In this document: one piece after another, positions 5,683 to 35,077 of the stretch
How positions within the stretch are numbered: the stretch's first letter is position 1
How the letters are laid out: every line of letters starts with the position of its first letter
Notes under the pieces: generated by a model
What the model was told of the DNA's origin: nothing
Database searches by the model: none
Seen by the model: the letters and a program-made list of their open reading frames with translations, nothing else
Assembly: GCA_944393745.1 (NCBI GenBank)
Contig: CALYBD010000011.1
Location: 1-59,005, forward strand
Reading direction: 5' to 3'
Length of the DNA: 59,005 nt
DNA from: an uncultured Alphaproteobacteria bacterium
GTDB taxonomy: Bacteria; Pseudomonadota; Alphaproteobacteria; CAAGCB01; CAG-977
Program-made: the position numbers and the translations under genes

Positions 5683-5807
5683 AAAAACCTCTCTTGAAAT
5701 AAAAGAACAATATGATGAATTCATATTGTTCAGATCAGTGTGTATGAAAAAAAACATAAAACAAACAGTTATTTAAAAACGAACAAAAGCGATGATTTGT
5801 TTTTTCT

Positions 5808-5835
5808 TTGACATCTTTCTTTTCTTTGATAGCAT
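5808..5835 (+). promoter_or_regulatory. Predicted sigma-70 promoter of leader RNA copy A
   Basis: A consensus -35 TTGACA (5808-5813) is followed after 16 nt by TAGCAT (5830-5835). Transcription would begin near 5842, where the first hairpin of the leader RNA starts. The same layout precedes copy C. Confidence 0.5.
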
Positions 5836-5841
5836 CTTGTC

Positions 5842-6045
5842 GTGCCGGATTTTGATCGGCACAGGGCGTCAGAAACCCTATTACATCTAGCCGCATTGTG
5901 TATGGCGGCCAATAAATTATACGCCGAATCTGTCCTTAACGGGCGGATTTCGGTGAATAAGGCTGTGTGCTGAATAAGCCGAGCCGTCTTTAGATGTAAA
6001 CGGTTTCTGAAAATCCGCCCACCTTGAAAAAGGTGGGTTTTGTTT
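5842..6045 (+). ncRNA. Structured leader RNA, copy A (novel family)
   Basis: The elements in order are: hairpin GTGCCG/CGGCAC (5842-5847/5857-5862); hairpin H1 AGGG/CCCT (5863-5866/5876-5879), whose loop TCAGAAA (5869-5875) pairs with TTTCTGA (6004-6010); long-range helix P2 TTACATCTA/TAGATGTAA (5881-5889/5991-5999); hairpin H2 GCCGC/GCGGC (5890-5894/5905-5909); H3 CCGAA/TTCGG (5924-5928/5949-5953); H4 GGCT/AGCC (5961-5964/5982-5985); and pseudoknot L3 GGGCGGATTT/AAATCCGCCC (5941-5950/6011-6020). The terminator hairpin CCCACCTT/AAGGTGGG (6018-6025/6030-6037) and TTTTGTTT follow. The last three bases of the pseudoknot strand are also the first three of the terminator. Copy B at 25106 is alignable and has compensatory changes. 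The element runs into AAAGGAT...TTCAGA and the start codon at 6071, a tail also shared with B. No known RNA class was recognised. Confidence 0.75.
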
Positions 6046-6070
6046 CATTAAATTCAAAGGATCTTCAGAA

Positions 6071-6640
6071 ATGATATCAAAATTCTTCAAAAAACTCGTT
6101 TCCGTTCACAAAACAAAGATTTACAAAAGGATACGTTTTTTCAACATCCAATGCACCATCTGGAAATATCATTATATGATACGCGAAATATACAGATATC
6201 AAAATTTCCAAAAATTATCTCAAAAGTTCAAAAACTGCGGAATTTCTTTACCGTTTGAAGCAAGCGTACTCATTGATGACGCAGAAATAGTTCATGTGCC
6301 GCTTAAAGATCTTCGCCGCGAATGGGACGGGAAACTGTACGATTTAACAGAATGTTCCCCATTCAAATATTTACAAACAAAAGATAAAAACATTTATGAG
6401 AATTATATTCAAAAACATATTGATCGAGGCCTCTTGCCGGCAGACGCCGACAAATCAACATCAAAATTTGACGCTTTAATCAAATCCATGGACGAAACAG
6501 GTTATGATCCTTCAAAATGCGTTATCGTTTTACGTAGAGACAATGTTCTTCTTGACGGTCAACATCGTGCATGTATTTTGCTGAATAAATATGGCGGCGA
6601 TTATAAAATAACCGCTATTCGTGAAAAACAATTTCGTTAA
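6071..6640 (+). CDS. 189-aa protein with a ParB-like DGQHRA motif, possibly surface-polysaccharide related
   Basis: Function unknown. The basic N-terminus (residues 1-60) is rich in aromatic and lysine residues and resembles tails of proteins from polysaccharide clusters. The C-terminal half contains SKFDALIKSMDETGYDP, CVIVLRRDNVLLDGQHRACILLNKYGG and KITAIRE. The DGQHRA box is typical of ParB/sulfiredoxin-fold domains, where it binds nucleotide; similar proteins occur in glycosyltransferase operons. No signal peptide is evident. The start is ATG 6071, with AAAGGAT upstream. It is a single-gene unit controlled by leader RNA copy A and is more AT-rich than its housekeeping neighbours, which suggests acquired DNA. 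Polysaccharide involvement is inference only. Confidence 0.6.
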   Translation: MISKFFKKLVSVHKTKIYKRIRFFNIQCTIWKYHYMIREIYRYQNFQKLSQKFKNCGISLPFEASVLIDDAEIVHVPLKDLRREWDGKLYDLTECSPFKYLQTKDKNIYENYIQKHIDRGLLPADADKSTSKFDALIKSMDETGYDPSKCVIVLRRDNVLLDGQHRACILLNKYGGDYKITAIREKQFR

Positions 6641-25097: not shown

Positions 25098-25105
25098 GGC
25101 TTCAG

Positions 25106-25308
25106 GTCGTTTCAATCAACGGCTCAGGGCGTCAGAAACCCTTTGGAATATAGTCGCAAAAGCATATAGCGACTTTAAATAACTATGCCGATTTCTGTCC
25201 TATGCAGGCGGATGTCGGCTGAATACGGCTATTCGCCCAATAGGTCGAGCCGTAAATATTCCTACGGTTTCTGAACATCCGCCTACCTTTTCGGGTAGGT
25301 TTTTGTTT
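25106..25308 (+). ncRNA. Structured leader RNA, copy B (novel family)
   Basis: It has the same order of elements as copy A. First hairpin GTCGTT/AACGGC (25106-25111/25118-25123). H1 AGGG/CCCT (25126-25129/25139-25142), whose loop TCAGAAA (25132-25138) pairs with TTTCTGA (25268-25274). P2 GGAATAT/ATATTCC (25145-25151/25256-25262). H2 GTCGC/GCGAC (25153-25157/25169-25173). H3 GCCGA/TCGGC (25187-25191/25215-25219). H4 ACGGCT/AGCCGT (25225-25230/25248-25253). Pseudoknot AGGCGGATGT/ACATCCGCCT (25206-25215/25275-25284). Terminator CCTACC/GGTAGG (25282-25287/25294-25299) then T-run. P2, H2, the first hairpin and both ends of the pseudoknot differ from copy A by paired changes. It precedes two cysteine-rich secreted proteins. 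Confidence 0.78.
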
Positions 25309-25335
25309 AACACAAGCAAAAAGGATTGTTCAGAG

Positions 25336-26166
25336 ATGAAAAAAACAACTTTAATCTTCTTTAGCGCACTGACAAGTGTTGTGCTGTTTCTTTCCCCGCC
25401 CGTAAATGCAAGGGGAACATACTATACACGTGAAGAAGCCGAAAAAGCCTGTCCCTATAGTTATGGCAATAACCGGTCAGTCTGTTTAAACAGTTCCAAC
25501 CGCACCGCATACTACACCTGTTACAAATATCGTTGTTCAACAGAACAAGACGGTGAACGGGAAGTATATGACTTTGATACGCTGGCCCAATGCCAGTGCG
25601 TATATCATTATGTATGCGTTTATTCGGCTTCTTCCGGCTATGACTGTACGCGCCCCTGTTATTTTAACGGGTCATCTTATGCGTATACTTATAAAAACGA
25701 TTCCTGCAAAGTTCCCTGCCCCGAAAACTGTACAACGTGCTCTTCGGGCGTATGTTCTGTTTGCCGCAACGGATATTTCCTCAGCAATGATAATACATGT
25801 CAAAAGGAAAAAAGCTGTTCTTCCTATTGTTCCGACTGTGACAAAACGACCGGAAAATGTTCAGCCTGTAAATCAGGGTATTACCTCAGCGATGACAACA
25901 CATGCCAAAAAGAAAAAAGCTGCACGTCCAACTGTTCCGACTGTGATAAAACCTCCGGCGTATGCTCTGCCTGCCGCAGCGGATATTACCTTTCCGGCGG
26001 CAGGTGTAATTCCTGTCCGAAAAATGCGACTTGTGACGGGAAATCATTCATCTGCAATGACGGTTACACGAAAACGAACGGAACCTGCAGACCACAGGAA
26101 ACAGTTTATTCCTGTCCGCCGCGTATGAAATTGTCAGCGGACAATTGCTGTTGTGTAAATAAATAA
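25336..26166 (+). CDS. Secreted cysteine-rich repeat protein (VSP/furin-like)
   Basis: A 276-residue protein with a signal peptide (MKKTTLIFFSALTSVVLFLSP, cleavage likely after VNA). About 40 cysteines follow. Three 35-residue repeats of the type CSDCDKTTGKCSACKSGYYLS...DNTCQKEKS resemble furin-like or Giardia variant-surface-protein repeats, where paired CxxC motifs form disulfides. The end is CCCVNK, and the next gene ends in CCCV. The start is ATG 25336, with AAAGGAT upstream, shared in sequence with the copy A leader. It is probably exported and disulfide-bonded; adhesion or host contact is conjecture. Confidence 0.75.
   Translation: MKKTTLIFFSALTSVVLFLSPPVNARGTYYTREEAEKACPYSYGNNRSVCLNSSNRTAYYTCYKYRCSTEQDGEREVYDFDTLAQCQCVYHYVCVYSASSGYDCTRPCYFNGSSYAYTYKNDSCKVPCPENCTTCSSGVCSVCRNGYFLSNDNTCQKEKSCSSYCSDCDKTTGKCSACKSGYYLSDDNTCQKEKSCTSNCSDCDKTSGVCSACRSGYYLSGGRCNSCPKNATCDGKSFICNDGYTKTNGTCRPQETVYSCPPRMKLSADNCCCVNK
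25696..26010 (+). repeat. Three in-frame 105-bp coding repeats
   Basis: The units at about 25696-25800, 25801-25905 and 25906-26010 each encode 35 residues ending in DNTCQ or an equivalent. Units 2 and 3 are the most alike at DNA level; unit 1 is more diverged. Copy number could vary by slippage or recombination without a frameshift. Confidence 0.7.
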
Positions 26167-34264: not shown

Positions 34265-35077
34265 TTACTTATAGTCCCGATCCGTTTTCTTTTCAAGGCC
34301 TTGAATGTACCAAACAGCGCTTTCGTACAAAAGAAGCAACGGCAATGCCAGTGCAAACTGGCTGATGACGTCAGGCGGCGTTAAAACAGCGGCAACAATA
34401 AAAATAAAAACGATCGCATAACGGCGAAAGTCTTTCAGATTTTGGGCACTGATTATCCCCAGACGCCCCAATACGACCAAGACGACCGGCAACTGAAAAC
34501 TGATGCCGAAAGCCAGAATTAAGCTCATTAAAAAAGACAGGTATTCGCTTAATCTGGCTTCCAATACAATCGGCAGCGTATTTTCCGGCGCGCTCAGTTG
34601 CTGAAAAGACAGCAAGAATTTAAACGCTATCGGTGTTAATACAAAAAAAACAAACAAGCCGCCGCAAACAAACAATACCGGAGAAGAAATAAAAATCGGA
34701 GAAACAAATTTTCTTTCATTCGGATATAATCCGGGAGCCACAAAGCGCCAAACCTGAAAAGCCGCAAACGGAAAACAAAGAACGGCCGCACCGAACGCCG
34801 CTAATTTTAAATGCGTCAAAAACCCTTCGGCCAACCCGGTAAAAATAACACGCTGAGAACCGCCCGTTTTTTCCATCGCTTGCGCCAAAGGATACATCAA
34901 TACATCTAAAATTCTGCCGGCACAGGGATATAGCACCAAAAACAACAGCGCAAAAAACAACAGAATTTTTAACAAACGGGCACGCAGTTCGGTTAAATGC
35001 CCCGTCCACGTCATCACGCTTTGTTCGTTTTCCGTTTCGTTATCGGATAAATCCGGCGGTAAAAAATCATTTGTCAT
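34265..35077 (-). CDS. tatC: Twin-arginine translocase subunit TatC
   Basis: Six-helix inner-membrane receptor for twin-arginine signal peptides. It has 270 residues. Seen are HLTELRARLLKILLFFALLFL, GLAEGFLTHLKLAAFGAAVLCFPFAAFQVWRFVAPGLYPNERK (read across the second and third helices), and the C-terminal FRRYAIVFIFIVAAVLTPPDVISQ with conserved TPPD. The ATG lies inside the tatB end, an 11-nt overlap. Confidence 0.97.
   Translation of the reverse strand: MTNDFLPPDLSDNETENEQSVMTWTGHLTELRARLLKILLFFALLFLVLYPCAGRILDVLMYPLAQAMEKTGGSQRVIFTGLAEGFLTHLKLAAFGAAVLCFPFAAFQVWRFVAPGLYPNERKFVSPIFISSPVLFVCGGLFVFFVLTPIAFKFLLSFQQLSAPENTLPIVLEARLSEYLSFLMSLILAFGISFQLPVVLVVLGRLGIISAQNLKDFRRYAIVFIFIVAAVLTPPDVISQFALALPLLLLYESAVWYIQGLEKKTDRDYK

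What the first reader, a model, noticed from the sequence alone, without database searches (positions are those of the whole stretch)
5842..6045. Unrecognised structured leader RNA (copy A), supported by covariation with copy B
Copies A and B align over about 200 nt and keep every helix by paired changes: P2 TTACATCTA/TAGATGTAA against GGAATAT/ATATTCC; H2 GCCGC/GCGGC against GTCGC/GCGAC; first hairpin GTGCCG/CGGCAC against GTCGTT/AACGGC; pseudoknot GGGCGGATTT/AAATCCGCCC against AGGCGGATGT/ACATCCGCCT. The unpaired strings (CAGGGCGTCAGAAACCCT, and AAAGGAT...TTCAGA before the start) are conserved. This is the signature of a selected RNA fold. I could not match it to a named riboswitch or ribozyme class.
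Basis: seen in the sequence. Interest (0 to 1): 0.93.

Follow-up and report, generated by a model that had tools for sequence, protein, structure and literature searches.

The report
Phage-type antisense RNA guarding secreted-protein genes
The sequence is one of about two dozen copies in this gut bacterium of a switch-like antisense RNA, built like the one phage P1 uses to control its antirepressor, but here placed in front of genes for secreted and surface proteins, each copy matched to the ribosome-binding site of the gene behind it.

Summary
The RNA is real and its covariation holds, but it can be recognised. It is a C4-type antisense RNA module (the type known from phages P1/P7), related to Rfam RF02221 (sRNA-Xcc1). 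Order: promoter, 5' hairpin, a1-b1, compact core (P1 stem, b' loop, a' strand), terminator, then Shine-Dalgarno/a2/start codon. The 'pseudoknot' is P1 of the core, competing with a1:a' and b1:b'. The genome holds 26 matches; 10 of 12 family genomes and a few other alphaproteobacterial families have it. Each a' strand fits its own gene's ribosome-binding site better than other genes' (0 of 20,000 permutations as good). a1, a' and a2 change together into several specificity classes, while b1:b' is nearly private to each copy and has no counterpart in the target. A blind RF02221 search lands on the same loci (58 of its best 60 hits). RF02221 loci elsewhere sit before phage antirepressor (Bro-N, KilA-N, P22_AR, Rha) and SymE genes and carry the same layout. 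Here the genes encode signal-peptide proteins (50 of 56, against 6 of 44 window ORFs). Translation repression and RNase P processing are inferred, not shown. It is a new chromosomal, multi-copy variant of a known kind.

The parts
5808..5835 (+). promoter of copy A: TTGACA-16-TAGCAT with extended -10 (TG)
   Evidence: an extended -10 TGNTANNNT lies upstream of 51 of 63 copies, shuffled mean 5.4
5842..5862 (+). 5' hairpin GTGCCG/CGGCAC
   Evidence: a stem of 5 or more pairs at this place in 61 of 63 copies, against 24 in shuffles
5869..5877 (+). a1 (TCAGAAACC), decoy of the target, pairs with a'
   Evidence: helix 1, 100% of cells paired, double changes AU/GC/CG
5881..5889 (+). b1 (TTACATCTA), pairs with b'
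   Evidence: 7 of 7 pairs with double changes; own against swapped 0/20000
5890..5909 (+). H2 hairpin GCCGC/GCGGC between b1 and the core
   Evidence: double changes UA to CG in 7 copies
5923..5954 (+). alternative hairpin holding the 5' strand of P1 in the precursor fold (weakly supported)
   Evidence: 94% of cells paired, few double changes
5941..6020 (+). C4-like core (about 80 nt): P1 5941-5950/6011-6020, P2, P3 with b' loop; full-length RF02221 match 5941-6028
5991..5999 (+). b' (TAGATGTAA) in the P3 loop
6004..6011 (+). a' (TTTCTGAA), antisense strand to the ribosome-binding site; pairing can extend into the 3' strand of P1
6017..6038 (+). intrinsic terminator directly after the core
   Evidence: terminator-like in 37 of 63 copies against 4 in shuffles
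6059..6071 (+). a2 target GGATCTTCAGAAA, from the Shine-Dalgarno to the start codon
   Evidence: own pairing -15.6 kcal/mol, 8-nt perfect core
6071..6640 (+). gene behind copy A (189 aa, P0001), no Pfam family; paralogue behind copy L004, relative behind L048
25068..25097 (+). promoter of copy B, CTGGCA-18-TATAAT with extended -10
25105..25125 (+). 5' hairpin of copy B
25132..25151 (+). a1 (25132-25140) and b1 (25145-25151) of copy B
25206..25284 (+). C4-like core of copy B; b' 25256-25262, a' 25268-25277
25281..25300 (+). terminator of copy B
25323..25334 (+). a2 target of copy B GGATTGTTCAGA, Shine-Dalgarno to start codon
   Evidence: own pairing -18.1 kcal/mol
25336..26166 (+). gene behind copy B: 276-aa signal-peptide, cysteine-rich repeat protein
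   Evidence: no Pfam family

Best explanation
The element is a C4-type antisense RNA unit with its target, co-opted by the chromosome. One promoter makes a transcript holding a1-b1, the core and, past a terminator, the gene. In the unprocessed transcript a1 and b1 pair with a' and b', so the antisense strand is hidden. When the core folds on its own (P1 formed; in phage C4 released by RNase P) a' is exposed and pairs with the stretch from Shine-Dalgarno to start codon of the gene, blocking translation. Because a' and a2 are shared by many loci in a few specificity classes, one core RNA can probably silence several genes of its class, whereas b1:b' is nearly private to each locus and can only serve self-pairing. 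Shown by sequence: layout, covariation, matched a1/a'/a2, the two alternative folds, homology to RF02221. Inferred: transcription, processing, repression, action in trans.
For: Covariation of a1:a', b1:b', H2 and P1 on 34 copies. Own a'-target pairing -13.8 against -10.5 kcal/mol permuted, 0/20000. Paralogues 91% identical (L102/L112) differ mainly in a1, b1, b', a' and a2, and do so in a matched way. b1/b' own against swapped 0/20000, 53 distinct b1 in 70 copies, b' without match downstream. 63 of 64 precursors fold with a1:a' and 60 of 60 cores alone fold with P1. Blind RF02221 search: 58 of the best 60 hits fall on these loci. R1 matches gamma loci full length (E 7e-6 to 5e-4). RF02221 loci have the same a1b1/a'b'/a2b2 self-matching (0/10000 for each) and lie before antirepressor and SymE genes. 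One alphaproteobacterial locus (L140) matches R1, RF02221 and, weakly, RF01695 C4 (27.4 bits). Phage P1 has the same order annotated: a1, b1, C4, a2, b2, icd.
Against: No transcript, processing or repression was measured. The Rfam C4 model itself does not match the window copies and R1 does not match phage P1. b2 is missing from the target in these alphaproteobacteria. Several copies have no or weak a2 (L122, L135, L045, L096). Permutation tests ignore relatedness, although specificity classes recur in distant families (L097, L098).
Confidence: 0.8

Rival explanations
1. A cis-only attenuator or riboswitch: the leader toggles between two folds in response to a ligand or translation signal and decides terminator read-through or access to the ribosome-binding site; no separate antisense RNA acts.
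For: Terminator and two exclusive folds sit in one leader; b1:b' is private to each copy, as expected for cis folding.
Against: The core alone is homologous to an RNA detected as an 88-nt transcript in Xanthomonas (RF02221; PMC2996969) and has its own stable fold. No conserved unpaired pocket typical of a ligand site was identified. The closest relatives are phage antisense modules.
Confidence: 0.13
2. A trans-acting small RNA family that happens to lie upstream of genes and mainly regulates other genes, like the C4-like sRNAs described for Acinetobacter baumannii.
For: Many copies share a'; A. baumannii has 21 C4-like sRNAs (PMC5320573).
Against: The a' strand is matched to the gene right behind it, and the target motif is largely confined to such genes: 29 of 34 matches in 12 genomes lie behind an element.
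Confidence: 0.05
3. A repetitive mobile DNA element (REP/MITE or attC-like) whose palindromes serve DNA recombination rather than RNA regulation.
For: Many dispersed copies; IS110-family insertions and integrase islands lie inside copies.
Against: Fixed distance to Shine-Dalgarno and start codon, promoter at the 5' end (51 of 63), coevolution with the ribosome-binding site: none is explained by DNA mobility.
Confidence: 0.02

Closest known systems
C4 antisense RNA of phages P1/P7 with targets a1-b1 and a2-b2 before icd-ant (Rfam RF01695, c4-a1b1 RF03163)
   Same: Order a1, b1, core, a2, start codon; core with P1 closing two hairpins, b' in a hairpin loop, a' just 5' of the last P1 strand; a1/a' and a' complementary to the ribosome-binding region of the next gene; specificity changed by a few matched bases.
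   Different: Rfam C4 model does not match; b2 missing; a2 lies between Shine-Dalgarno and start codon; a terminator-like hairpin directly follows the core; about two dozen chromosomal copies; targets are secreted or surface proteins, not antirepressors.
sRNA-Xcc1 (Rfam RF02221)
   Same: Full-length match of the core (1-87) at 28-41 bits; blind search recovers the same loci; its loci show the same a1b1 / a2b2 layout, found here.
   Different: Below the gathering score of 53; RF02221 models only the core; its genes are SymE and phage regulators; the RF02221 loci examined usually keep b2.
C4-like Group 1 sRNAs of Acinetobacter baumannii (PMC5320573)
   Same: Many chromosomal copies of a C4-like core that varies in a'.
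   Different: There they are described as sRNAs with unknown targets; here each copy carries its matched target gene.
c4-2 RNA (Rfam RF02944)
   Same: Same Rfam clan as C4.
   Different: No match to the window copies.

Membership tests
C4 antisense RNA (RF01695) | Matches the Rfam covariance model at gathering score (45 bits) | tested here: not met
   Not reported even at E up to 10 for 5700-6100; best alphaproteobacterial relative L140 27.4 bits; phage P1 itself 68.8 bits
C4 antisense RNA (RF01695) | Core: P1 stem enclosing hairpins, b' in a loop, a' between last hairpin and P1 | tested here: met
   compared with P1 layout
C4 antisense RNA (RF01695) | a1-b1 upstream, complementary to a'-b' | tested here: met
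C4 antisense RNA (RF01695) | a' complementary to the ribosome-binding region (a2) of the next gene | tested here: met
C4 antisense RNA (RF01695) | b' complementary to b2 in the target | tested here: not met
   own pairing no better than permuted
C4 antisense RNA (RF01695) | Controls a phage antirepressor gene | tested here: not met
   Window genes are a 189-aa protein without Pfam family and a cysteine-rich secreted protein
C4 antisense RNA (RF01695) | 5' end made by RNase P; represses translation | not testable with these tools
   Only indirect: P1 begins with GG and is followed by CACC/TACC/CGCC in 58 of 63 copies
sRNA-Xcc1 (RF02221) | Matches the model at gathering score (53 bits) | tested here: not met
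   29.4 bits copy A, 30.5 copy B, 40.7 best copy of this genome
sRNA-Xcc1 (RF02221) | Homology of the whole core, with significant scores in a blind search | tested here: met
   58 of the best 60 RF02221 hits in 12 genomes fall on R1 loci, all over model positions 1-87
Known riboswitch or ribozyme class | Match to any such Rfam family | tested here: not met

The most novel reading that the evidence does not exclude
A chromosomal regulon of surface genes wired by antisense 'addresses': a' is the shared class address by which any copy can silence all genes of its class in trans, and b1:b' is a private lock that lets each transcript recognise and neutralise its own antisense strand, so that genes of a class mutually silence each other and expression can shift between surface proteins. 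New classes arise by matched changes at a1, a' and a2.
Probability: 0.3. Interest if true: 0.82.

Novelty: new variant of a known kind. Interest (0 to 1): 0.64.

Why it matters
It shows a phage-immunity type of antisense RNA spread through bacterial chromosomes as a leader for secreted and surface proteins, with target recognition that can be read off the sequence. It also gives sRNA-Xcc1, studied as a virulence-linked trans-acting sRNA, a testable role: a C4-type repressor of the gene right behind it (for example symE). I found no paper in the held library that makes either link.

Tried and rejected
Known Rfam families at gathering score: none at the element. Third copy in the window: chance match at 34810. 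b' pairing with the target in these alphaproteobacteria: none. A large set of unlinked targets: only 5 of 34 target-motif matches lie away from an element. Phage and plasmid collections: one unannotated faecal contig with the same leader before a signal-peptide ORF, no plasmid. R1 against phage P1: no match. Protein structure prediction was not used: the question is about the RNA.

Full report
Observation. Copy A (window 5842-6073) and copy B (25105-25338) are real relatives (68% identity over 262 aligned positions, E 6e-26). Copy A is far more structured than shuffled sequence (z -8.4). The window holds only these two; a search of the own genome finds many more, and a covariance model of 158 positions (R1) gives 26 matches in this 2.25-Mb genome, matches in 10 of 12 genomes of the family, and in 19 of 385 genomes drawn from the class. 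The element is also found in 67 stretches of named public genomes, nearly all uncultured gut or rumen Alphaproteobacteria, among them Azospirillum sp. CAG:239.

Covariation. In an alignment of 34 copies made without structure, 12 of 29 proposed pairs show changes on both sides; 105 cells have double changes against 26.7 in shuffles, covariation score 0.300 against 0.107, and sliding the partners by 1-3 columns destroys the signal. All seven b1:b' pairs covary, with four or five pair types each. With both ends anchored, 70 copies pair 6.2 of 8 b1:b' positions with their own partner against 3.8 with others (0 of 20,000 permutations); 53 of 70 b1 sequences differ.

What it is. The core (5941-6028) gives a full-length match to RF02221 sRNA-Xcc1 (29.4 bits, gathering 53). 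To test whether that is more than chance I searched 12 genomes with RF02221 alone: of the 60 hits with E below 0.02, 58 fall on loci found independently by R1. In reverse, R1, which includes the 5' half, finds three RF02221 loci of other Pseudomonadota over all 158 positions. RF02221 occurs in 58 of 398 Pseudomonadota genomes. Reading 30 of those loci showed what Rfam's 87-position model leaves out: an upstream a1-b1 and a downstream a2-b2 around the ribosome-binding site, both complementary to the core's a'-b' strand of the same locus better than to those of other loci (0 of 10,000 permutations for each). The genes behind them include Bro-N, KilA-N, P22_AR_N, Rha and SymE proteins, and in phages Pmp1 and Rac-SA53 an antirepressor is annotated directly behind the RNA. 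This is the layout of the C4-icd-ant module of phage P1, whose record annotates a1, b1, C4, a2, b2 and icd in that order. P1 and the RF02221 loci also share the stretch after b1 (ACCGCA...TGCGGTATTTTTG; read directly).

The alphaproteobacterial variant. Here the target is one block, a2, running from the Shine-Dalgarno to the start codon (GGATNTTCAGAAATG and variants). Own a'-target pairing averages -13.8 kcal/mol, permuted -10.5 (0 of 20,000). The sequence falls into classes (TTCTGA 43, TTTCGA 13, TTCTAA 5, GTTTGA 4, TTGTAA 1, others 21), in most of which a1, a' and a2 change together; some TTTCGA copies keep a mismatch with their target. The clearest case is a pair of paralogues in one genome, L102 and L112: 90.8% identical, with differences concentrated in a1, b1, b', a' and a2, much like the few bases that separate P1 from P7 (PMC5320573). 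b2 is gone: b' shows no match to its own downstream region. So b1:b' serves only self-pairing.

Mechanism. In 63 of 64 precursors the minimum-energy fold pairs a1 with a'; in 60 of 60 cores folded alone P1 forms, leaving most of a' unpaired. A promoter with extended -10 precedes 51 of 63 copies (shuffled 5.4), a 5' hairpin 61 of 63, and a terminator-like hairpin follows in 37 of 63 by strict criteria. In phage P1 the core is released by RNase P at the 5' end of P1, and C4 blocks translation (PMC5320573, PMC12197685, citing the original work); sRNA-Xcc1 was seen as an 88-nt RNA (PMC2996969). By analogy I infer that the free core silences the gene or genes with a matching a2 and that the unprocessed transcript is self-neutralised. 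None of this is shown here.

Targets. Genes behind complete elements encode signal-peptide-like proteins in 50 of 56 cases, against 6 of 44 long ORFs of the window (crude test, genes not independent): cysteine-rich repeat proteins, outer-membrane barrels (Pfam OMP_b-brl), lipoproteins. The exact target motif occurs 34 times in 12 genomes, 29 times right behind an element, so the regulated set is essentially the set of genes that carry the element. Paralogues L001 and L004 carry different leader subtypes, which suggests that leaders are exchanged between loci.

Verdict. A new variant of a known kind: it works like C4 and shares ancestry with sRNA-Xcc1, but it is not filed as a member of RF01695, whose model and b2 feature it fails, nor does it reach RF02221's cut-off.

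Noticed in passing
G000 contig ends C5:38-68, C18:37-67, C24:38931-38961, C57:12865-12895; G000:C1:124456-124738; L156/L266 (G553:C200): An IS110-family element has inserted at the same site in at least four copies of the RNA element (after GGCGGAT in P1); the contig ends encode the last 18-19 residues of its transposase with 100% identity, and a short derivative with a long palindrome sits in a fifth copy. The non-coding end contains TGTCGGCG, which matches the target flank, as a bridge RNA would.
   Followed up: partly
L036, L050, L058, L124, L126: In five genomes the element breaks off at CGGTTTCTGA and a common sequence follows; in L050 a tyrosine integrase (Pfam Phage_integrase) lies there, so the RNA gene seems to serve as attachment site for integrative islands.
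   Followed up: partly
RF02221 loci L061-L090: sRNA-Xcc1 loci carry a1-b1 and a2-b2 sequences matched to the core, including those before SymE genes; the Rfam scans show no clan for RF02221, while C4, c4-2 and c4-a1b1 share clan CL00128.
   Followed up: yes
L138 (G003:C25:1-1490): A sub-threshold RF02221 match (27.9 bits) before a weak Bro-N (antirepressor-like) gene in the same genus, a possible source of the chromosomal variant.
   Followed up: no
L131-L134 (G007, G005, G001, G000:C35): A further subclass (a1 GGACTTCACAAT, a' GGTTTGTGAAC); L133 and L134 lie before a PD-(D/E)XK nuclease-family gene (Pfam PDDEXK_4) and L131 before an unannotated gene, possibly defence-related.
   Followed up: no
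window 6071-6640: The 189-aa protein P0001 has no Pfam family; a paralogue (L004) in this genome and a relative (L048) in another species are also behind the element, but without a signal peptide.
   Followed up: partly
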